This document shows, in pieces, positions 6,187-41,960 of a stretch of DNA of 64,000 nucleotides. Every line of letters begins with the position of its first letter. Position 1 is the first letter of the stretch. The notes under the pieces are model-generated. The model was not told the DNA's origin. It did not search any database and worked only from the letters and a program-made list of their open reading frames with translations. The position numbers and the translations under genes are program-made. Source of the stretch: Curvibacter sp. CHRR-16 (lineage in GTDB: Bacteria > Pseudomonadota > Gammaproteobacteria > Burkholderiales > Burkholderiaceae_C); assembly GCF_018474005.1 (NCBI RefSeq), contig NZ_JAHCSH010000001.1, forward strand, positions 62,001 to 126,000, read 5' to 3'.

Positions 6187-6648
6187 ATGGAAAAAGCCCT
6201 GACACGGGTGGTGGTCTACACCGATGGTGCCTGCAAGGGTAATCCCGGCCCCGGTGGCTGGGGGGCCTTGCTGCGTGCTGTCGATGGCACCGAAAAAGAG
6301 CTGTTTGGTGGCGAACGTGATACCACCAACAACCGCATGGAAATGATGGCAGTGATCCAAGCCTTGACGGCGCTGCGCCGCCCCTGTGCAGTGGAGTTGC
6401 ATGTGGATAGCCAGTACGTGCTCAAAGGCATGACCGAATGGCTGCCGGGCTGGAAGGCCAAAGGTTGGGTGACGGCTGCTAAACAACCTGTCAAAAACGC
6501 CGATTTATGGCAGCAGCTCGATGCACTGGTCAATGGGCAAGGCCACCGCATTGAATGGCGTTGGGTTAAAGGCCACGCAGGCGACCCCGGTAACGAGCAT
6601 GCCGATGCACTGGCCAACCGCGGGGTAGAGCTGGCTTTGGGGCGCTAG
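6187..6648 (+). CDS. rnhA: Ribonuclease HI
   Basis: This 153-residue enzyme degrades the RNA strand of RNA-DNA hybrids such as R-loops and Okazaki primers. All four acidic catalytic residues are visible: Asp in [16 protein letters not shown], Glu in NNRMEMMA, Asp in [10 protein letters not shown], and Asp in [10 protein letters not shown] basic protrusion (GWKAKGW) is also present. The ATG directly follows the stop of the methyltransferase gene. The 3' end overlaps the convergent mobA by 4 bp. Confidence 0.96.
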
Positions 6649-7304
6649 TGGCCCACCACGTAGTCGGCGCTGTGGTTCAGGTTGGCAAAGGCGTCAGGGC
6701 TATCGCTCTCTACCGTGGCCCAGACCATGGGTAGGCTGGCGTACCAGTCTTGCACGCGCCGTGTGCCTGCATGTAGCGCTGCATCCAGCGCATCGAGCAC
6801 ATCCAGACAGACCAAGCACACCAGTGGTTGTGGGCCCTGTGCGGTGCTGACAGCAGCAAGCCGTGTAGAGGCTGGTGCAGCACGCAGCGCTTGCTGCAAG
6901 CGGTACAGCGTGTGGGTTGGTAGGTGCAGCATGTCGCAGGGGCAAAACAGCAGCCACTCTAGGTTGGTTTGGCTTTGGGCCCAGCGCAGGCTGCTGAGCA
7001 TGCCTGCCAAGGGGCCTGCTTGCAGGTGTTGGTGGTCACTCCAAACCGGGTAACCCAGTGTTTGGTAGCGTTCGATGTGGCGGTTGGCGTTGATGCCAAA
7101 GCGCTGCAGCAGCGTGCTATCGGTGGTGGGATCTGTTTGCTGTTGCAACTGCCCCAGTACGTGTTGCACCATGGGCTGCTGTTGGTAAAGAAGCCAACCC
7201 TTGTCACGTCCTCCAACGCGGCGACCTTGACCGCCCGCTAGTACCACGGCACAGGTGTTGTCTGTGTGGGGGAGTGCGCGGGTTGGCGCAGAGTGTTCAG
7301 CCAC
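6645..7304 (-). CDS. mobA: Molybdenum cofactor guanylyltransferase
   Basis: This enzyme attaches GMP to molybdopterin to form the bis-MGD cofactor of DMSO-reductase-family enzymes. The nucleotide-binding start is [17 protein letters not shown], with the family LAGG and RxGG residues, and the acidic [10 protein letters not shown] follows. The product is 219 residues. The start is GTG at 7304, overlapping the end of moaA by 8 bp, so translation is probably coupled. Production of MGD implies molybdoenzymes elsewhere in the genome. Confidence 0.9.
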
Positions 7305-8382
7305 CGATGTAGCTCATTTCTATGCGGCGCAAGGGCTGGTCGACTACCGTATTCGGTATTTGGCCCAAGCTGCGCAGCTCGGAATAGCGGTCTTGCCGTT
7401 GCTGCCAGATAGTGGCAATGCGTGTTTGCAGCGTGGTGTCATCTACGCCATTGCGCAGCAGGCTGCGCAAATCGTGGCCTTGGTGGGCAAACAGGCACAG
7501 GTAAAGCTGTCCTTCGGTGGACAAGCGTGCACGCGTGCAGCTACGGCAAAAGGCTTGGCTCACGCTGCTGATAAAGCCCAACTCCCCTAAGCTGGGGTCT
7601 GCTCCCGTGCTGTTGGTGCGGCAGTAGCCCCAGCGGGTCGCGGTTTCGCCGCTCTGGCGTGGTAGTTCGGTCAGATGGAAGTGCTGCTGTAGCTGGGCCA
7701 GTAATTGCTCCGAGGGAACCACTTGCTTGGCTTGCCAGCCATTGGTGCTGCCAACGTCCATGTACTCAATAAAGCGCAGTGCCACGTTGTGCCCATGGAA
7801 GTAGCGTGCCATAGGCAGCACTTCATGGTCGTTCACACCGCGCTGCACCACCATGTTGATTTTGATGCGGCCAAACCCCGCCGACTGCGCAGTGGCTATG
7901 CCTTCAAGCACGCTGTGCACGGGAAAGTCCATGTCATTCATGCGGCGGAAAGTAGCGTCGTCTAGGCTGTCTAAGCTGACGGTGATCCGGGTCAGTCCCG
8001 CATCTTTGAGGGCACGTGCTTTTTGGGTCAGCAGGGAGCCATTGGTGGTCAGGGCCAAATCCAGTGGGTGACCATCTGGCGTGCGTAGCATCGCCAGTTG
8101 CTCGACCAAGCGTTCTATGTTTTTGCGCAGCAGGGGTTCACCGCCAGTAAGCCGTATCTTGCGTACACCCAAAGCCACGAATTGGCGTGCCAAGCGGGTG
8201 ATTTCTTCAAAGCTGAGCAAAGCACTATGGGGCAGGTAAGGGTAGTCTTTGCCAAACACTGCCTTGGGCATGCAGTAGGCGCAGCGAAAGTTGCAGCGAT
8301 CGGTCACGCTGATGCGCAAGTCATGCAGTGGGCGATTCAGTGTGTCCAGAAGCGGCAAAAACGGTTGCAAAGTAGAGGGCAT
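7297..8382 (-). CDS. moaA: GTP 3',8-cyclase (molybdopterin synthesis)
   Basis: This radical-SAM enzyme makes the first intermediate of molybdenum cofactor from GTP, together with MoaC. The SAM cluster motif CNFRCAYC follows SVTDR near the N-terminus, and TGGEPLLR is the SAM-binding strand. The C-terminal cluster ligands are in CRSCTRARL and the later LCLF. Many MoaA proteins end in double glycine and this one does too (SYIGG). I chose the ATG at 8382 (361 residues); a TTG 27 bp upstream is possible. It is the first gene of a moaA-mobA operon, and no other Moco genes are nearby. Confidence 0.93.
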
Positions 8383-8462
8383 GCCAGTATTGTGCGGTGA
8401 CTGTGACAATACACCTTGTTATGCACAGATAAATCGGTGGAAATTGGGAGCCACCACACCAG

Positions 8463-10415
8463 ATGTTTGAATCTCGCACGCTGTTTTGGATAGGTTGGTT
8501 TGCCACGGTACCTTTTGTTCACGCGCAGTCCGTGAGCGAGCTCGACTACTTATCTGATGTACCCGTGGTGCTGTCGGTGTCGCGCTTAAGCCAGCCTTTG
8601 CATGAGGCGCCGGGAGCGGTGACGATTCTGGATCAGGCTTTTATCCGTGCCAGTGGTGCCCGCAATGTGGCTGATTTGTTGCGTTTGGTGCCCGGTTTTC
8701 AGTCCACTACCTCATATGAAACCGATGTGTCCACCGCCGCGTACCATGGTCGGGTGGATGATTTCTCCAGCCGCATGCAGGTCTTGGTCAATGGCCGTTC
8801 GGTGTATTTTGGGAACCAAGACGGAACAGTTGGTCTGGGCTTGCAGCAGCTCGATGTGCAGGACATTGAGCGCATAGAGGTGCTGCGTGGCTCCAATTCT
8901 GCAAGCTACGGTGCACGGGCGTTTTTGGGGGTTATCAATATCGTGTCGCGTTCCTTGCGGCAGGGCCCCAGCAGCCGTGTGAGCTTACAAGCCGGCACCA
9001 ATGGAGTGGCTGATAGCAGTGCCCGCATCACGTGGGGCGAAACCGATGCGGTGTACGAAGTGAGTTTCTCCAGTACCCAAGATGATGGCTTGCAAGGAGC
9101 ATTTGGCAAAAACCAAAGCCGTCGCGTCAATATGGCGGCGCTTTGGGATTGGCAAGAGGCAGGGGAGTTGGAGTGGCGTTTGGGTGGTTTGCAACTCAGG
9201 GCTGGAACAGGTTCAACCGATGCCACGGAGTACGGCAATCCCGCCCGCTTTAGGGGTTACACCACAGGCTATACCCAAGTACGCTGGCAGCGGTCTTTGG
9301 ATGCCAACCATGACATCGCCGTCGAGGCTTCCCATTCGGTTTACACACTCAATGATGCCTATACGTACGGGGATCCTTCGTCGATTTATTACGGTTGGTC
9401 GGTCGATAGTTCTTCGCTGGAAATTAACGATGCACTATCGGTGCAAAGCACCCAACGCCTTGGGCCTACGCAGCGCTTAGTGCTGGGTGCAGAGCTTCGC
9501 CAAGAGCGCGATGTCTCTGAATCCCTTTACAGCGCCAGCGGTGGACAAGTGTTGTCGCATTTCGAGCGCCTTTATTCCAACTGGGAATGGCACTTTCAGC
9601 CCGATTGGACTTTGAACGCTGGTGCACTGGCCGAGCGCAGTACTTTGGGGGGCGATTCCTTGTCTCCGCGGTTGATGGTCAATTGGCAGTTCATGCCTGC
9701 ACAGACTGTGCGTGCAGGGGTGTCACAGGCTTTTCGCCCGCCCAGTGCTTTTGAGAAGTTTGGTGTTTTGCGGTTCTGGAATCCAAACCACACCAGTCAA
9801 ACCATCACGTTTTCCCAAGCCGATGGCACGCTCGGCTCTGAGCGTTTGTTGGTGCAGGAGTTGGGGTACAACTTGGGCCGTTTGGGCAATGGCATCAGTG
9901 CCGATGTACGCTGGTTCCAAGAAAAAATCACTGACGGTATTCGCCACAACGGCCAAACGCCTGTCATTTATTTGGGTCTTGAGCGCTACAACATCCAAGG
10001 CCTTGAATACCAATTGGAATGGCGCCCCACCAGTGCAACGGCTTTGTTTCATGGCGCCTCTTGGATTGATATCAGTCAATTGCAGACCAATCGCAGCGAC
10101 AAGACTTATCGGACTGTGTACAGCGCCCCTAAATTCTCGGCATCTTTGTTGGCGATGCATACCCTGCCTTCGGGCATGAGTGTGAGCATGGCTTACAACG
10201 TATGGCAGCAAATGACCTTGTTGTCTGCTAGCGATGAGCAGCCGTATTTCTCGGCTGAGCGCTGGGATGCCCGCATAGCCAAACCCTTTCAGTGGGGCCG
10301 CAACAAAGGTTCATGGCATTTGACGGGGCAGAACATTGGCCCGTCTTACCGCGATGGTGATAGGAAGTTTTACTTACTGCAGCAGTGGCTGTTGGGTATG
10401 ACGGTGGAGTACTGA
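8463..10415 (+). CDS. TonB-dependent outer-membrane receptor
   Basis: This 650-residue protein has a signal peptide (cleavage probably after VHA), then a plug domain at about 45-160 with APGAVTILD, ARNVADLLRLVPGFQ and IERIEVLRGSNSASYGARAFLGVINIVSR. A beta-barrel follows and ends in an aromatic residue (GMTVEY), as expected for Bam-dependent folding. The plug resembles the FepA/CirA/BtuB group, but no diagnostic residue gives the ligand. There is no N-terminal signalling extension of the FecA type. A binding protein and a hybrid kinase follow 2 bp downstream and then by a 4-bp overlap. That suggests that the receptor feeds a sensor and not a full transporter. Confidence 0.88.
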   Translation: MFESRTLFWIGWFATVPFVHAQSVSELDYLSDVPVVLSVSRLSQPLHEAPGAVTILDQAFIRASGARNVADLLRLVPGFQSTTSYETDVSTAAYHGRVDDFSSRMQVLVNGRSVYFGNQDGTVGLGLQQLDVQDIERIEVLRGSNSASYGARAFLGVINIVSRSLRQGPSSRVSLQAGTNGVADSSARITWGETDAVYEVSFSSTQDDGLQGAFGKNQSRRVNMAALWDWQEAGELEWRLGGLQLRAGTGSTDATEYGNPARFRGYTTGYTQVRWQRSLDANHDIAVEASHSVYTLNDAYTYGDPSSIYYGWSVDSSSLEINDALSVQSTQRLGPTQRLVLGAELRQERDVSESLYSASGGQVLSHFERLYSNWEWHFQPDWTLNAGALAERSTLGGDSLSPRLMVNWQFMPAQTVRAGVSQAFRPPSAFEKFGVLRFWNPNHTSQTITFSQADGTLGSERLLVQELGYNLGRLGNGISADVRWFQEKITDGIRHNGQTPVIYLGLERYNIQGLEYQLEWRPTSATALFHGASWIDISQLQTNRSDKTYRTVYSAPKFSASLLAMHTLPSGMSVSMAYNVWQQMTLLSASDEQPYFSAERWDARIAKPFQWGRNKGSWHLTGQNIGPSYRDGDRKFYLLQQWLLGMTVEY

Positions 10416-10417
10416 CG

Positions 10418-11344
10418 ATGCTGCGCCGTTTTTTCCTCCTGATTGCGCTCTTTGGAATGCTGCTTGTGAGTGCCAATGCTTTTGAAGTACTGGTGGTGCG
10501 TTCGGACAGGAATCCGGCTTATGCCGAAGCTTCGGATTTGTTGGTGGAGGAGTTGCTGCGCCGAGGGGTGTCCCGCAGCGATATTGGCTTGCAAACGGTA
10601 ACGGAGTGGCAGCAAAACCGCTCAGTCTCTATGGGTGCCAAGGTTTGGCTTGCTGTAGGGTCAGATGCCTTATCGACTTTGTTGGCGGTGCCCAACCGCC
10701 CGCCTGTTGTGGCATCGATGTTGCCCAAATTGGCATATGACAGAACGCTGCGCGAGTGGGGGGGGCGTTCAGCAGGCGTTACTGCTGTGTATTTTGATCA
10801 ACCATTGCCCCGTGTGCTAGCCGCAGCGCGTGCGGCCTATCCCGAGTCCAAACGAGTGGGGGTTTTGTGGGGCAATGAGTCGGTTCTTGTGTCTAATGCC
10901 TTTCAAACGGCGGCGCACGAGCAGGGCTTTGCGGTACGTTCAGCCCAAGTGTTTGCCAGCACCCAAATTTTTGCTGCATTGCAAAGCGTATTGGATGACA
11001 CCCAATTGCTGATAGCGTTGGCCGATCCTTTGGTTTACAACGCCAGTTCTGTGAGCAATATTTTGCTAACCAGCTACCGTGTTGGTGTGCCTGTGTTGGC
11101 TTTTTCGCCAGCTTACGTCAGGGCTGGTGCGCTGTTGGCTTTGTACACAACCCCCAAGCAGCTAGCACCGCAAATTGTGGCCCAAGTCATGGGGGTGTTG
11201 TCCAGCAACTCTGTACCTGCCGCCCAATTCCCGCAAGATTTCACGATAGACGTCAATGACTACGTGGCCAAGTCCTTGGGTTTTGCTACCAGTGCTGCCG
11301 TTTTGACCGAGCGGGTCAAACGCATGGAGGCTATCAAGCCATGA
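10418..11344 (+). CDS. Periplasmic ABC-type substrate-binding protein (PF04392-like)
   Basis: This 308-residue protein begins with a signal peptide (MLRRFFLLIALFGMLLVSANAF) without a lipobox Cys. The two-lobed pattern resembles the PF04392 'ABC transporter substrate binding' group: GAKVWLAVGSDALSTLL, VASMLPK, TAVYFDQPLPRVLAAARAAYPESKRVGVLWG, and a later ALADPLVYN. No permease or ATPase gene is beside it. Its stop overlaps the start of the hybrid kinase (ATGA), and it begins 2 bp after the receptor stop. I infer that it presents a periplasmic ligand to the kinase; it could also serve a transporter encoded elsewhere. The ligand is unknown. Confidence 0.75.
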   Translation: MLRRFFLLIALFGMLLVSANAFEVLVVRSDRNPAYAEASDLLVEELLRRGVSRSDIGLQTVTEWQQNRSVSMGAKVWLAVGSDALSTLLAVPNRPPVVASMLPKLAYDRTLREWGGRSAGVTAVYFDQPLPRVLAAARAAYPESKRVGVLWGNESVLVSNAFQTAAHEQGFAVRSAQVFASTQIFAALQSVLDDTQLLIALADPLVYNASSVSNILLTSYRVGVPVLAFSPAYVRAGALLALYTTPKQLAPQIVAQVMGVLSSNSVPAAQFPQDFTIDVNDYVAKSLGFATSAAVLTERVKRMEAIKP

Positions 11345-13275
11345 TGTTGTTTACCAGCATACGCCGCCGCATGCTGCTTGCAGCCTTGATGCCTGTGGTA
11401 TTGGTGATTGTGGTCTTGTCCAGTGTGTTCTGGATGAACCGCATGAACGATTTGGACGCCACATTTTTGCAGCACGCACGTTTGATTGCACGCCAGGCCG
11501 CAGCATCTGGGGTGTATGGGGTATTTGCAGGCAATGTGGCGGTGTTGGGCGACATTGCTGCGGGTGCTGCCAAAGAGCCTGATGTGCGATCGGTGGCTAT
11601 TTTCGATATCAATGGCAAAAAATTGGTCAGCGTCGGGCCGTTGACCTATTTGGATTTGGATCAAGCTCGCAGCGATGTGCAGGCCCATTTGGTGCACCAA
11701 CGCAATTTGGAATTGTTGGTGGAACCGATTTCATCGGGCGCAGCCTTGCAAGACGATATGTACAGCACCATGACATTGTCCGATGGCAGTGTGGTGGAGC
11801 GGCCCTTGGGTTATGTGGTGCTAGAGGTCAGTCGCCAGCGGCTCATTACCAGCCAAAAGGACTTGCTGTTTTTGGCTTTGGGTGTGACCCTGTTGGGCAT
11901 TGTGGTCGGTGGCATTTTGGCTTTGCAGTTGGGCGAGGGCGTCATGCGCCCTGTGATGCGCATTACGCGCATGATCGAACGTTTGGGCCAAGGGGATTTA
12001 CGCCCAGCCCACGATGCGCGCGTCGATGACCCGTTGTACGACTTGCAAATCCGTTTGAACCAAATGGCGCAGCGTTTGGCATGGGGGCGCGAAGAGATGG
12101 AGTTTCGCGTTGCGACCGTTACCAATGAGTTGCGTCTCAAGAAAGAGGAAGCTGAATTGGCCACCTTGGCCAAAAGTCGGTTCTTGGCTGCAGCAAGCCA
12201 CGATCTGCGCCAACCGACCCATGCTTTGGGCATGTTTGTTGCCCGCTTGGGGCAACTGTCATTGACCGACGAGGCGCGCCATGTGGTGCGCAATTTGGAA
12301 GCTTCGTTGTCGGCTATGCAGGACTTGCTAGACGGCTTGTTGGATTTGTCGCGTCTAGAAGCTGGGGCCGTACAGGCCCATGCCAAACCAGTTCCGTTGC
12401 AACTCATCTTTGATGATGTGCGCAAGTCATACGAAAACGTTGCGCAAGCCAAAGGTTTGCGTTTGCGTGTGGTCTCCAATAGCCATTGGGTGCAAACCGA
12501 TCCGGTGCTGTTGAAGCAGATCGTGATGAATTTGGTTTCCAATGCCATTCGCTATACCGATACAGGGTCAGTCCTGCTAGGGGCGCGGCGTTTGGTCAAA
12601 GACAATGCTTTGCGGCTTGATGTTCTGGACACTGGCATAGGCATTGCCCCAGAGCACCAAGAGCGCATCTTCCAAGAGTTTTTCCAAATTGGGAACCAAG
12701 CGCGCGATCGCAATTTGGGCTTGGGCTTGGGCTTGAGTATCGTGCAGCGTACAGCCAGGTTATTGGGGCATGCTTTGGCAGTGCAGTCCAATTTGGGCCA
12801 AGGAACGCGCTTTTCTATCGTGTTGCCGCTGGCTGAACCTGTTGCTGCATCCATGGCGACGCTGCCCGTTGGCATGGCTGAAACCGATGTGGCAGGCATG
12901 CGCGTCTGGCTTATCGAGGACGATGATTTGGTGCGGCAGTCGGTCGCTGATTTGCTGCAATCTTGGGGGTGCGAGGTCTACGCATGCAGTGGTGGTCATG
13001 CTGCGCTGGCGCAACTGAATCAATGGCCAAGTCCGGATGTGATAGTCAGTGATTACCGTCTAGCCGATGGGATGGATGGGATTGAGACCATAGTGGCTGT
13101 GCGGGAGCATTTGGGTACATTGACCCCGGCTTGTTTGATCAGCGGGGATACCGATGCCGATCTGTTGGCCCGTGTCAAAGAAGGCGGCCTGACACTCTTG
13201 CACAAGCCAGTACGCCCGGCCAAGTTGCGCAGCTTCTTGAGACGACTGCGCGCTCAAGTACCGGACATTAGTTGA
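11341..13275 (+). CDS. Hybrid sensor histidine kinase with receiver domain
   Basis: This is a 644-residue inner-membrane kinase. TM1 is near residues 10-30, and a periplasmic sensor follows (about 31-175; the DLDATFLQHARLIARQAA helix recalls CHASE8-type sensors). TM2 is at about 178-200 and HAMP at about 200-250. HisKA has its phospho-His in AAASHDLRQP. The ATPase domain has NLVSNAIRYTD, DTGIGI and GLGLGLSIV. A C-terminal receiver runs from about 520, with IEDDD and VSDYRLADGMDGIE (phospho-Asp in SDYR) and the Lys in HKPVRP. The start overlaps the binding-protein stop, so the sensor probably reads that protein. The convergent LuxR-type regulator is the likely output, with the attached receiver as modulator or phosphate sink. 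Confidence 0.9.
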   Translation: MMLFTSIRRRMLLAALMPVVLVIVVLSSVFWMNRMNDLDATFLQHARLIARQAAASGVYGVFAGNVAVLGDIAAGAAKEPDVRSVAIFDINGKKLVSVGPLTYLDLDQARSDVQAHLVHQRNLELLVEPISSGAALQDDMYSTMTLSDGSVVERPLGYVVLEVSRQRLITSQKDLLFLALGVTLLGIVVGGILALQLGEGVMRPVMRITRMIERLGQGDLRPAHDARVDDPLYDLQIRLNQMAQRLAWGREEMEFRVATVTNELRLKKEEAELATLAKSRFLAAASHDLRQPTHALGMFVARLGQLSLTDEARHVVRNLEASLSAMQDLLDGLLDLSRLEAGAVQAHAKPVPLQLIFDDVRKSYENVAQAKGLRLRVVSNSHWVQTDPVLLKQIVMNLVSNAIRYTDTGSVLLGARRLVKDNALRLDVLDTGIGIAPEHQERIFQEFFQIGNQARDRNLGLGLGLSIVQRTARLLGHALAVQSNLGQGTRFSIVLPLAEPVAASMATLPVGMAETDVAGMRVWLIEDDDLVRQSVADLLQSWGCEVYACSGGHAALAQLNQWPSPDVIVSDYRLADGMDGIETIVAVREHLGTLTPACLISGDTDADLLARVKEGGLTLLHKPVRPAKLRSFLRRLRAQVPDIS

Positions 13276-13891
13276 GCCCCATGTAGCCGCTGCGTGCAGC
13301 TGCCACCACGGCTTGGGTGCGGTTTTGCACGTCAAAGTGGCGCAAGATGGCGGCCACGTGGGATTTCACGGTTTCTTCTGAAATGAATAAACGCTCAGCG
13401 ATGTCTTTGTTGGACAAGCCATCAAGCAATAGCTGCAATACCTTGATTTGGCGTTGGGTAAGGTTTTCTTGGTGGTCGCTGTTGAGCAGTTCTGGTGGCT
13501 CGTAAATGTCGCCTTGCAGTACGGTGCGTACCGCAGTCAACAGTTCGTCGCTCATGGATGATTTGCTGACAAATCCGGAGGCCCCGACTTGCAGCATCTG
13601 CCGTATTGCATGCGTGCTGTCTGTGCCAGAGATGACGATGATGGGCAGTTCAGGGTGTTCTTGCCCAAACACCTCCAAGGCTTGTAAACCATTCATGTCA
13701 GGCATGTGGTAGTCCAACAAGACCAAATCGATATCGGAGTGTTGTGCTGCTAAAGCGAAAGCCTGATCGCAGCGTTGGGCTTGGAGTACCTCAACGCTTT
13801 CATCTAGCCCTTTGAGCACTTGGTGCAGGCCTTCGCGCACCAGGGCATGATCATCGACAACGAGTATTTTCACAGGAAGACCAGTATGCAT
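13268..13891 (-). CDS. LuxR/NarL-family response regulator
   Basis: This 207-residue regulator has a receiver domain (VVDDHALVREGL, phospho-Asp in LVLLDYHMPDMNG, Lys in GFVSKSS) and a C-terminal LuxR helix-turn-helix (LTQRQIKVLQLLLDGLSNKDIAERLFISEETVKSHV). The ATG at 13891 is my choice; a GTG six codons downstream is a rival start. It ends 8 bp inside the hybrid kinase gene on the opposite strand, and convergent kinase-regulator pairs of this kind usually work together. Its promoter region is shared with the divergent ppa. Targets are unknown, and the receptor operon is the obvious candidate. Confidence 0.88.
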   Translation of the reverse strand: MHTGLPVKILVVDDHALVREGLHQVLKGLDESVEVLQAQRCDQAFALAAQHSDIDLVLLDYHMPDMNGLQALEVFGQEHPELPIIVISGTDSTHAIRQMLQVGASGFVSKSSMSDELLTAVRTVLQGDIYEPPELLNSDHQENLTQRQIKVLQLLLDGLSNKDIAERLFISEETVKSHVAAILRHFDVQNRTQAVVAAARSGYMGLN

Positions 13892-13972
13892 TAAACCGCT
13901 TAACACCCAGAACACTCTGGAGTGAATCGGTAGAATCAAGGAATTCCTTATTAAACCTTAATTGAGACCCCT

Positions 13973-14509
13973 ATGTCACTGAATCTTGTTACTCCTGGCA
14001 GCAAAGTTCCCGAAGCATTCAATGTGATCATTGAAATCCCTATGAATGCCGATCCCGTCAAGTTCGAGGTGGATAAGGAGTCTGGTGCCTTGTTTGTGGA
14101 TCGTTTCATGAGCACCGCCATGCATTACCCCACCAACTATGGGTATGTTCCCCAAACTTTGTCTGGAGATGGTGATCCAGTGGATGTGCTCGTGATCACG
14201 CCTTTCCCATTGCCTGCAGGCGTGGTGGTGCCTTGCCGTGCATTGGGTATTCTCAAAATGCAAGATGAAGCAGGCGAGGATGGCAAGTTGCTGGCCGTGC
14301 CCACAAGCAAAATTTTGCCGTTGTACGATGGCTACAAAAGCTATACCGATGTCAGCCCATTTCTCTTGAATTCCATAGTTCACTTCTTTGAACACTACAA
14401 AGATTTGGAAAAAGGAAAGTGGGTCAAGGTCACCGGTTGGGATGGTGTTGAAGCGGCGCACAAAGAAGTATTGGATGGTGTTGCCAATTACGCTAAAACC
14501 AAGGCTTAA
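13973..14509 (+). CDS. ppa: Inorganic pyrophosphatase
   Basis: This cytosolic family I pyrophosphatase hydrolyses PPi and drives biosynthetic reactions to completion. The product has 178 residues, the usual size. The signature with three metal-binding Asp is visible as [14 protein letters not shown], preceded by [18 protein letters not shown] and the FFEHYKDLE helix are also typical of the family. It is followed after 34 bp by cheW with its own strong ribosome-binding site. Confidence 0.96.
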
Positions 14510-18787: not shown

Positions 18788-19249
18788 TTATTGTGACTGA
18801 TTGTTACGCAGAAATTGGGCAAAACCGGGGTCAGTATAGGCACTGGGGGGCAATTCACCAGTCAGGATTTGGGTGTCCACATCGGCTACTTCTTGGGCGT
18901 AGTCGTCGGCCTTCCATTGGTCCATGGCCACCCAGGTGGCCATGAGCAGCAAAAACGCAGCAGTGGCACCCATGGGGCGTAGCCAACGCCATAAACCGCT
19001 GGGGCCACCCGTCAAGGTCAGGCTGGCAGAGGCACCATTGGCTTGTGCTTGCCAGTTTTGGGCCGCCACCAAGCTCTGGCGGCGTTTTTCCAGTGCCAAG
19101 CTGCGGGCTGCTTTGAGGCGTTGGCTGATGTCATGCGGTAGCTGCTCCGCGCCGTGGTTGAGGTGACGCACCACAGCATGCGCCAAGGCATCGGCGGCCT
19201 GTTGCTCGGTAGGGGTGACAGAGAGGGTTTGCAGGTGCTGTGTCGTCAT
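18788..19249 (-). CDS. DUF3619 protein, possible anti-sigma factor
   Basis: This 153-residue protein has an N-terminal helical cytoplasmic part (ADALAHAVVRHLNHGAEQL, then LKAARSLALEKRR), one membrane helix near residue 100 (GATAAFLLLMATWVAMDQW), and a short C-terminal part. It starts at 19249 with a 4-bp overlap with the sigma factor stop. Small single-pass proteins coupled to ECF-like sigma factors are often anti-sigma factors, and that is my inference. No zinc-binding ZAS motif (HxxxCxxC) is visible. The C-terminal sequence (GELPPSAYTDPGFAQFL) looks typical for DUF3619. Confidence 0.72.
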   Translation of the reverse strand: MTTQHLQTLSVTPTEQQAADALAHAVVRHLNHGAEQLPHDISQRLKAARSLALEKRRQSLVAAQNWQAQANGASASLTLTGGPSGLWRWLRPMGATAAFLLLMATWVAMDQWKADDYAQEVADVDTQILTGELPPSAYTDPGFAQFLRNNQSQ

Positions 19250-19812
19250 AGTGAGATGCCTTTCGCTTTCAGGGCGGCAGCCAGTGCTTTGACAGCACGG
19301 AAACAGTGCGTTTTGACGCTGCCTTCTGAGCAACCCATCGCCGCCGCTGTCTCTGCCACATCCATATCCTCCCAGTAACGCAGCAGGAATGCTTCCCGTT
19401 GACGCTCTGGCAAATCTTGTAACTCTTTTTCTATCGCAAGCAAGGTTTGTTCCCGTTCTAACCTATTTTCGCTGCTTTCGCCAATTTCACCCGCTTCTTG
19501 GGAGCTGAGCATCTCCAACACATCGAAGTCATCGGAGGAGTCGTCACCCTCAAAATCGCTCATGTTGGTGAACAAGGCCGAACGGGCCTTGTTGCGGCGG
19601 AACCAGTCGAGGGTGGTGTTGGAGAGGATGCGCTGGAACAGCATGGGCCACTCATCCGGGCCTTTGTGGCTGTAGTGTTCAGCCAGCTTGATCATGCTGT
19701 CTTGTACGATGTCCAGCGCCGCTTCATCGTCACGCACATGGTAGAGCGCGCGCTTGAAGGCCCGCGCCTCCACGCTTTTCAGAAAATCTGACAGCTCTTT
19801 TTCGGTTGCCAA
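19246..19812 (-). CDS. RNA polymerase sigma factor, ECF/sigma-70 family
   Basis: This 188-residue protein has region 2 (ALDIVQDSMIKLAEHY, then WPMLFQRILSNTTLDWFRRNKA) and region 4 (LPERQREAFLLRYWEDMDVAETAAAMGCSEG followed by VKTHCFRAVKAL). An acidic linker (DFEGDDSSDDFDVLEML) separates them. The start is probably TTG at 19812: no ATG is in frame upstream and the N-terminus MATEKELSDFL looks natural. It heads an operon with DUF3619, DUF3106, RDD and dgkA genes, all envelope proteins, which points to an envelope-related regulon. Confidence 0.87.
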   Translation of the reverse strand: MATEKELSDFLKSVEARAFKRALYHVRDDEAALDIVQDSMIKLAEHYSHKGPDEWPMLFQRILSNTTLDWFRRNKARSALFTNMSDFEGDDSSDDFDVLEMLSSQEAGEIGESSENRLEREQTLLAIEKELQDLPERQREAFLLRYWEDMDVAETAAAMGCSEGSVKTHCFRAVKALAAALKAKGISL

Positions 19813-41200: not shown

Positions 41201-41960
41201 CACCCTGCCATCGGATCGGCAAGCCGCGCAGGAGGTGGGCATGAATGATTTCTTGCCCAAGCCGATCGACGTTACCGAGCTTACCAGTGTGCTGCTGCGC
41301 TGGATCCAACCCACGCAGCACGAGAGCGTTGCCATGCTGGATGCAGCGCAGCCCTTGGCGCAGCGGAAAACATCCTTTTTTGTGGCTGGTTTGGCGCTCC
41401 CAGAAGCTGCGGCCCGCCTAGGGGGCGATTGGGGCTTGCTGCGTCGCATCGTGCAAAGCTTTGCCATCGACATGTACAAGGTGCCCCAAGAGTTGCAGCA
41501 TCTGCTATCACAAGGGCGCATGCAAAGCGCCAGCGAACTGGTGCATACCGTCAAGGGTGTTGCCAAAACCATTGGCGCTACCGAGTTGGCCGTACTGGCT
41601 GAGCAGCTCGAAATGGAAATGCAGCAAGGACTCTCGACATCGCACAACGCCTTTGCATTGGCGCTGGTCAATGTGTGCGACGCCATTCGCAGGTTGCCCG
41701 CTGACGACATGGCACAGCCTGCGCGTGATCTGCCCAAAGAGCGTATGCAGGCTTTGCTGCACGATATTCATACCGCCTTGCAGCAGTCTAGGTTTGTGTC
41801 GCCGAAATGGTTGGAAGAGTTGGGGGCTGGCGTATCTACCCCTGTACAACACATCGTGTACAGCAAGCTGTTGGCACAAATTGAGGCGCTGTCTTACGAC
41901 ACCGCACTGAGCACATTGCAGGAGTTGGCCTCATGTTGCCAACTGGAAATAGGTGAATAG
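38220..41960 (+). CDS. Multi-domain hybrid histidine kinase (PAS3-HK-REC2-Hpt)
   Basis: This 1246-residue phosphorelay protein has a membrane region of about four short helices (1-110) resembling DUF4118, and then three PAS/PAC units (about 120-240, 245-370, 375-500). HisKA has its phospho-His near residue 523 ([10 protein letters not shown]). The ATPase domain lies at about 620-735 (GNAIKF, DTGIGM, GGSGLGL). REC1 is at about 755-880 (Asp in [11 protein letters not shown]), REC2 at about 913-1030 (Asp in [12 protein letters not shown]), and Hpt near 1065-1150 (phospho-His in LVHTVKG). The layout is BarA-like. It ends 4 bp before a receiver-GGDEF gene, its probable partner. Confidence 0.93.

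What the first reader, a model, noticed from the sequence alone, without database searches (positions are those of the whole stretch)
8463..13891. Receptor, binding protein, hybrid kinase and regulator as one sensing unit
A TonB-dependent receptor, a periplasmic binding protein and a hybrid kinase are joined by a 2-bp gap and a 4-bp overlap, with a LuxR-type regulator convergent to the kinase. No permease, ATPase, FecR or sigma factor is present. This differs from the known FecA-FecR-FecI surface-signalling route and would carry an outer-membrane signal to a phosphorelay through a soluble binding protein. The coupling is seen; the signalling path is inference.
Basis: partly seen in the sequence, partly recalled or inferred. 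Interest (0 to 1): 0.75.

Follow-up and report, generated by a model that had tools for sequence, protein, structure and literature searches.

The report
Receptor–binder–sensor gene module
In this bacterium, likely of the Rhodoferax lineage, the genes for an outer-membrane receptor, a periplasmic binding protein and a membrane kinase form one unit that recurs across related bacteria with interchangeable output enzymes and mostly without the transporter genes that such binding proteins usually accompany, and it is predicted to sense a compound rather than feed on it.

Summary
Observation confirmed: TonB-dependent receptor (TBDR, 8463-10415), PF04392 binding protein (SBP, 10418-11344; 2-bp gap), sCache_4 hybrid kinase (11341-13275; ATGA overlap) and a convergent LuxR-type regulator (13268-13891). 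In 80 named loci the TBDR directly precedes the SBP in 77 and the kinase directly follows in 78. In 399 genomes of the order, 79 strong SBP matches were found; 75 of 78 downstream proteins carry sCache_4, but outputs differ (54 GGDEF, 21 histidine kinase) and change at least 17 times on an SBP tree. An ABC-ATPase-like ORF lies within 4.5 kb in 0 of 49 such loci against 18 of 19 ordinary PF04392 loci, though in 9 of 80 named loci within 8 kb; a TBDR is nearby in 36 of 49 against 0 of 19. So SBP plus sCache_4 sensor is a portable input module, usually with a TBDR. Most likely the TBDR supplies a ligand and the SBP sets the sensor, as LuxP does for LuxQ; path, ligand and regulon are untested. It works like LuxPQ or YfiBNR without being YfiBNR. 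Ten searches of open-licence papers found no description.

The parts
8463..10415 (+). TonB-dependent outer-membrane receptor, 650 aa (signal peptide by eye, Plug, beta-barrel); no N-terminal STN signalling domain found
   Evidence: pre-plug motif P-x-[VI]-[IL]-S-[VA]-[SA]-R in 67 of 75 relatives' N-termini
10418..11344 (+). Soluble periplasmic binding protein, PF04392, 308 aa; signal peptide ending ANA by eye, no cysteine so no lipoprotein anchor
   Evidence: AlphaFold mean pLDDT 95, PBP type I fold by matches
11341..13275 (+). Hybrid histidine kinase, 644 aa: TM - sCache_4 (32-171) - TM - HAMP (below cut-off) - HisKA (His287) - HATPase_c - REC (Asp571)
11434..11853 (+). sCache_4 periplasmic sensor region of the kinase (residues 32-171), the proposed docking site of the binding protein
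   Evidence: PF09984 43.5 bits, cut-off 22.1; the only sCache_4 match reported in the genome
13268..13891 (-). LuxR-type response regulator (REC Asp60 + GerE), convergent with the kinase; likely its output
   Evidence: convergent homologue in 57 of 78 kinase-bearing named loci, 8 cut by the contig end, 13 without
8410..8462 (.). 53-bp divergent gap between moaA (from its TTG at 8409) and the receptor gene; presumed promoter region
   Evidence: promoter not tested

Best explanation
The three co-directional genes at 8463-13275 and the convergent regulator at 13268-13891 form a conserved gene unit that likely senses a compound: the TonB-dependent receptor is predicted to bring it into the periplasm, the PF04392 binding protein would capture it, and the loaded (or empty) binding protein would dock on the kinase's sCache_4 domain to set its activity. 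The kinase would then pass phosphate to the LuxR-type regulator, directly or through an Hpt domain of another protein. Shown: gene order, overlaps, domains, conservation of the SBP-sensor pair, exchange of output domains, and rarity of ABC partners. Inferred: ligand import, docking, sign of the response, phosphotransfer route and target genes. In the order-wide sample the same input pair drives GGDEF proteins more often than kinases, so the module is best described as a portable periplasmic input.
For: (1) Named loci: TBDR directly upstream of the SBP in 77 of 80, kinase directly downstream in 78 of 80, both in 76. (2) Order-wide sample of 399 genomes: 79 strong matches (226 bits or more) in 73 genomes; of 78 downstream proteins 75 carry sCache_4, 73 HAMP, 54 GGDEF, 27 EAL, 21 HATPase_c; 54 of 75 sensor pairs have the same 4-bp overlap. 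(3) Same neighbour, different outputs: at least 17 changes among three output classes, at least 10 when coded only as kinase or c-di-GMP, on one quick 89-row SBP tree. (4) ABC-ATPase-like ORFs in 0 of 49 module loci but 18 of 19 ordinary PF04392 loci; BPD_transp_2 permease is the next gene in 14 of 31 low-scoring loci and is not among the 22 families found in the 78 module neighbours. (5) TBDR within the stretch in 36 of 49 module loci, 2 of 12 intermediate and 0 of 19 ABC-type loci. (6) In the window's genome the SBP is the only PF04392 match above cut-off and the kinase the only sCache_4 match. (7) SBP model is a PBP type I fold, nearest CD0873, 3lkv and TrpX-like 3lft; LuxP is Foldseek rank 11; the sensor model is Cache/PAS-like, with LuxQ and a LapD-type domain among matches. 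(8) In 17 loci, TBDR, SBP, kinase and regulator distances correlate after moaA and ppa are regressed out (partial r 0.74-0.92). (9) Binding-protein control of sensor kinases has solved precedents (PMC6321045, passages).
Against: 27 of 79 order-wide loci lack a recognised immediate upstream TBDR (3 of them with no upstream ORF found), and 13 of 49 have none in the fetched stretch, so the receptor is not obligatory. 9 of 80 named loci have an ABC-ATPase-like ORF within 8 kb; of four scanned, three are real ABC_tran genes beside the receptor and one is a two-domain ABC_tran protein. 13 of 78 named kinase loci have no convergent regulator. In the class/phylum set only 28 of 38 downstream proteins have sCache_4. 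The profile A1 came from 15 loci already seen beside a kinase or GGDEF protein, and 5 of the 73 order-wide genomes supplied its rows, so these counts are not fully independent; the bit-score split was read after the data. Raw SBP-MoaA distance correlation (0.82) exceeds SBP-TBDR (0.77), and the pairs are not independent. No free Hpt above cut-off is evident. No docking or binding was tested. sCache domains may bind small ligands themselves. Sensor fold matches are generic to Cache domains; LuxP is not among the 50 rows.
Confidence: 0.6

Rival explanations
1. YfiBNR-like sequestration: the receptor does not mainly import; it (or its TonB-driven movement) binds the binding protein at the outer membrane and so takes it off, or hands it to, the kinase.
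For: Same three-compartment layout, and a published precedent of an outer-membrane protein sequestering a periplasmic repressor of a HAMP-linked sensor whose output varies between GGDEF, GGDEF-EAL, HPT and kinase (PMC3375315, passages); similar output variation here.
Against: SBP matches only PF04392 in Pfam; its model has a full binding-protein fold; no TBDR in the stretch of 13 of 49 loci.
Confidence: 0.2
2. Regulated uptake: receptor and binding protein are import parts for a nutrient carried onward by an unlinked permease, and the kinase only controls their expression.
For: PF04392 proteins lie beside permeases elsewhere; 9 of 80 named loci have an ABC-ATPase-like ORF within 8 kb, real ABC_tran genes beside the receptor in three of four scanned; TBDR genes are often regulated by neighbours (established knowledge).
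Against: ABC-ATPase-like ORFs in 0 of 49 order-wide module loci; one PF04392 protein above cut-off in the genome; the SBP stays with the sensor where the TBDR is not found and when the output is a GGDEF protein.
Confidence: 0.15
3. Neutral synteny: the genes are neighbours by descent and do not work together.
For: Many named loci are Rhodoferax and share other neighbours; moaA is on the opposite strand in 27 of 80; raw SBP-MoaA distance correlation is 0.82.
Against: moaA was not found in 53 of 80 (9 of these cut near the contig end) while the triad stays; the SBP-sensor pair persists with at least 17 output changes; 4-bp overlap in 54 of 75.
Confidence: 0.05

Closest known systems
LuxP-LuxQ, TorT-TorS and XylFII-LytS (binding protein plus sensor kinase)
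   Same: A periplasmic binding protein gene beside a sensor kinase; LuxP is Foldseek rank 11 for the SBP model and LuxQ is among VIA matches of the sensor model; precedents in PMC6321045 (passages)
   Different: Different binding-protein subfamily (PF04392) and sensor family (sCache_4); a TBDR is usually part of the unit; output exchanged for GGDEF proteins in relatives
YfiBNR (AwsXRO, TpbB)
   Same: Outer-membrane, periplasmic and inner-membrane HAMP-linked sensor components; variable outputs described (PMC3375315, passages)
   Different: No YfiR and no OmpA-type lipoprotein; a ligand-binding-protein fold and a TonB-dependent receptor instead
FecA-FecR-FecI cell-surface signalling
   Same: A TonB-dependent receptor linked to a cytoplasmic response
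   Different: No STN domain, no FecR, no ECF sigma in the unit
TrpX/CD0873-type PF04392 binding proteins
   Different: Permease or ATPase partners not found in 49 order-wide loci; a distinct high-scoring subfamily
BarA/GacS-type kinases (sCache_4, formerly DUF2222)
   Same: Same sensor domain family; PMC4822843 calls DUF2222 the sensory module of BarA/GacS-type kinases (passages)
   Different: Coupled to a binding protein; that paper's table row (column heads not in the passages I saw) gives 705 of 713 in what I take to be the kinase column, whereas GGDEF is commonest here
NahK/ErcS kinases with ErdR-type regulators
   Same: Best NCBIfam matches of the kinase (NF041832) and the regulator (NF041830)
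   Different: Both below the curated cut-offs (355.3 of 400; 133 of 390 bits)
TOL_0244 family TBDR (seen raised on a long-chain alkane in Thalassolituus; PMC6304351, passages)
   Same: Best NCBIfam match of the receptor (149.2 bits)
   Different: Far below its cut-off of 645, so no ligand is implied

Membership tests
FecA-type TonB-dependent transducer | N-terminal STN signalling domain | tested here: not met
   Pfam finds only Plug and barrel; Plug starts at residue 46
FecA-type TonB-dependent transducer | Adjacent FecR anti-sigma and ECF sigma gene | tested here: not met
   The one FecR match of the genome is on contig C6; neighbours
ABC importer (PF04392, TrpX type) | PF04392 fold | tested here: met
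   34.6 bits, cut-off 25.9; fold matches
ABC importer (PF04392, TrpX type) | Linked permease and ATPase | tested here: not met
   None adjoins in the window; 0 of 49 order-wide module loci with an ABC-ATPase-like ORF, 18 of 19 ordinary loci, but 9 of 80 named loci within 8 kb
LuxPQ/TorTS-type binding-protein-gated kinase | Binding protein gene coupled to a kinase with a periplasmic domain | tested here: met
LuxPQ/TorTS-type binding-protein-gated kinase | Physical docking of binding protein on the periplasmic domain | not testable with these tools
YfiBNR | YfiR-family periplasmic protein and OmpA-type lipoprotein | tested here: not met
   SBP matches PF04392 only; the outer-membrane part is a TBDR
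YfiBNR | HAMP-linked sensor with exchangeable output | tested here: met
   the window's own HAMP match is below its cut-off
BarA/GacS kinases | sCache_4 sensor | tested here: met
   43.5 bits, cut-off 22.1
BarA/GacS kinases | C-terminal Hpt (tripartite kinase; recalled as a feature of BarA) | tested here: not met
   no Hpt match in the window kinase; Hpt in relatives L055, L058, L059
NahK/ErcS kinases | NCBIfam NF041832 above cut-off | tested here: not met
   355.3 of 400 bits
TOL_0244 family TBDR | NF053590 above cut-off | tested here: not met
   149.2 of 645 bits

The most novel reading that the evidence does not exclude
This is an unnamed family of trans-envelope signalling systems in which a TonB-powered receptor without an STN domain reports to the cell through a freely diffusing binding protein that reads a sCache_4 sensor, with outputs plugged in as needed: phosphotransfer in Rhodoferax, c-di-GMP in most of the sampled order. 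TonB-dependent signalling would then have a second general route besides FecR and sigma factors.
Probability: 0.4. Interest if true: 0.85.

Novelty: new variant of a known kind. Interest (0 to 1): 0.68.

Why it matters
Binding-protein-gated sensors and tripartite envelope signalling are each known from a few cases. Here a binding-protein subfamily found in 73 of 399 sampled genomes of the order is tied to one sensor domain, usually with an outer-membrane receptor, and where named it is called an ABC substrate-binding protein or hypothetical. If the path holds, it gives TonB-dependent receptors a route to gene control and c-di-GMP that needs neither FecR nor a sigma factor, gives a role to receptors with no linked transporter, and predicts which PF04392 proteins are sensors and which are importers.

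Tried and rejected
Uptake operon: not the main reading, because ABC partners are absent from 49 of 49 order-wide module stretches (8 of these stretches are shortened by contig ends or starts). The same regex flagged 9 of 80 named loci within 8 kb; of four scanned, L101, L110 and L121 carry real ABC_tran genes upstream of the receptor and L119 a two-domain ABC_tran protein with ABC_tran_Xtn; five were not scanned and no permease was looked for there, so a transport link in that lineage is not excluded.

FecA-type signalling: rejected on domains and context. Alkane sensing by analogy with TOL_0244 (PMC6304351, passages): rejected, far below the family cut-off. [quoted passage not shown] PrhA and Rsc1598 in Ralstonia (PMC11925246, passages) are two separate inputs. 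The ped cluster (PMC12997753, passages) gave only context for ErcS and ErdR.

Upstream ORFs of about 200-300 aa in loci without a receptor were tested as substitute envelope parts: of 10 scanned, 5 are RNase_T, 2 SCO1/SenC, 1 endonuclease V, 2 without a family, so no common partner.

Not resolved: the three downstream proteins of A2 without sCache_4 appear to be L216 (a DEAD-box match turned up among the 78, probably an ORF choice error), L222 (contig end) and L227 (by local profiles; L177 had no downstream ORF); and class-level neighbours that look unrelated, such as short ORFs in L282, L289, L294 and L296. Neighbours were chosen by rule (longest same-strand ORF close to the SBP). One search scored at most 5 candidates a genome, so its counts are lower bounds. 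Controls: 31 of the 56 low-scoring matches were fetched and split after the fact at about 90 bits into L228-L239 and L240-L258. Of the class-level matches only the best 29 with loci were studied. The tree is a quick one: 26 of 86 inner branches are below 80 support; 10 named rows were labelled kinase plus TBDR by me, L137 with its kinase upstream. Complex modelling of SBP with sensor was not possible.

Paper searches found no description of a TBDR-PF04392-sCache_4 unit; listings only, except for the seven papers whose passages I read (PMC11925246, PMC6321045, PMC9769818, PMC3375315, PMC12997753, PMC6304351, PMC4822843). The library holds open-licence PMC papers only, no preprints.

Full report
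What is there. The window carries, on the plus strand, a TonB-dependent receptor (8463-10415), a PF04392 binding protein (10418-11344) and a hybrid kinase (11341-13275), with a 2-bp gap and an ATGA overlap, and a convergent REC-GerE regulator with its stop at 13268-13270 and its ATG at 13889-13891. The kinase keeps its phospho-accepting His287, ATP-binding boxes and receiver Asp571; the regulator keeps Asp60; the binding protein has a signal peptide by eye and no cysteine. The receptor has Plug and barrel only. The genome is probably of the Rhodoferax lineage: a same-genus genome (G034) has a contig of 742,346 bases, the length of Rhodoferax bucti Scaffold3. The unit is accessory: 21 of 36 same-genus genomes sampled have an SBP match (two of these, G003 and G022, in the variant loci L058 and L059), and several nearly complete genomes have none.

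Is the unit conserved. Eighty named loci (mostly titled Rhodoferax, Curvibacter, Comamonadaceae or uncultured beta proteobacteria) were collected with the SBP profile; 220 stretches matched and the best 80 were kept. The receptor directly precedes the SBP in 77 and the kinase directly follows in 78; a convergent regulator homologue is present in 57 of those 78, with 8 cut by contig ends and 13 without. The receptor misses are L078, L097 and L145; in L078 the receptor frame overlaps the SBP. In L137 the kinase lies upstream of the receptor instead. The profile was made from loci already seen beside signalling genes, so this shows conservation but is not an independent test.

Wider sample. In 399 genomes of the order, 119 had a match at E 1e-15 or better. 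Scores fall in two groups: 79 matches of 226 bits or more, in 73 genomes (five of these genomes supplied rows of the profile), and 56 of 158 bits or less. For the high group, Pfam finds sCache_4 in 75 of 78 downstream proteins, GGDEF in 54, EAL in 27 and HATPase_c in 21; 24 of the 78 are cut at about 500 aa by the length of DNA given, so the EAL count is low (local profiles give 35). Upstream, 51 of 76 proteins are TBDRs (52 of 79 loci by a local profile). Of the other 27 loci, 8 have a receptor elsewhere in the fetched stretch; over the 49 loci with up to 4.5 kb on each side, 36 have one. The low group behaves differently: of 31 downstream genes fetched, 14 are BPD_transp_2 permeases, and among L240-L258 18 of 19 have an ABC-ATPase-like ORF and 0 of 19 a TBDR. 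The intermediate loci L228-L239 are often beside signalling proteins too: of 7 downstream proteins scanned, 6 are kinases or GGDEF-EAL proteins, with a TBDR in 2 of 12 loci; so coupling of PF04392 proteins to signalling is broader than this subfamily. At class and phylum level, 48 of 274 and 13 of 398 genomes match at 1e-40; all 13 phylum-level hits are in the same class. Of 38 further loci from these searches, 30 have an upstream TBDR, 28 a downstream sCache_4, 28 HATPase_c and 2 GGDEF.

Exchange of outputs. On a quick tree of 89 SBPs the output changes at least 17 times among kinase, GGDEF and GGDEF-EAL, at least 10 times when coded as kinase or c-di-GMP, and receptor adjacency at least 11 times (26 of 86 inner branches are weakly supported). 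Kinase, GGDEF and GGDEF-EAL versions occur within one starred clade (L149, L150, L152, L153, L155). The simplest reading is that selection keeps the SBP with the sensor domain, not with the enzyme behind it. In 17 named loci with all genes, distances among receptor, SBP, kinase and regulator correlate after moaA and ppa are regressed out (0.74-0.92). Before that, SBP follows MoaA (0.82) at least as well as it follows the receptor (0.77); the pairs are not independent, so this is weak support.

Mechanism. The best-supported account is a sensing unit in which the receptor supplies a ligand and the SBP binds it and gates the sCache_4 sensor. The precedents are LuxP-LuxQ, TorT-TorS and XylFII-LytS (PMC6321045, passages) for binding protein to kinase, and YfiBNR (PMC3375315, passages) for an outer-membrane to periplasmic to HAMP-sensor relay with variable outputs. 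The genome has one TonB_C match well above cut-off and a second lower one, so TonB energy is available. Its seven Hpt matches above cut-off are all in frames of 737 aa or more, one of them inside the window at about 41448-41690, and the one small frame (130 aa) is below cut-off, so which protein would complete a phosphorelay is open.

Verdict. Confirmed observation, interpretation partly supported: a real, recurrent sensing module, apparently undescribed in the open-licence papers searched, and a new variant of known binding-protein-gated signalling.

Noticed in passing
L036:2197-4251 against window 13939-13973: In L036 an H+-translocating pyrophosphatase gene (PF03030) lies next to the regulator, and ORFs of similar size lie between regulator and ppa in several relatives; in the window no such gene is there and the regulator directly adjoins ppa.
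   Followed up: partly
window 6645-8409: moaA and mobA are divergent from the receptor gene; an opposite-strand moaA is present in 27 of 80 named loci, so a shared promoter region is possible, but other lineages have other neighbours.
   Followed up: partly
L058:792-7951, L059:823-7915: Same-genus variants with SBP, a kinase with REC-REC-Hpt, and the TBDR placed downstream; in L058 the gene between is a REC-GGDEF protein, joining both kinds of output in one gene row.
   Followed up: partly
L228-L239: More distant PF04392 proteins beside kinases (HisKA_3 or GAF hybrid) or GGDEF-EAL proteins, 6 of 7 scanned: the coupling of this binding-protein family to signalling is wider than the subfamily studied.
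   Followed up: partly
window 18788-19812: Sigma-70-family gene followed by a DUF3619 gene, a possible sigma and partner pair unrelated to FecI-FecR.
   Followed up: no
A2 (78 downstream proteins of L149-L227): sCache_4 (DUF2222) is described in the 2016 Cache survey as the BarA/GacS kinase sensor (PMC4822843, passages), but 54 of 78 proteins here carry GGDEF and 75 of 78 sCache_4.
   Followed up: no
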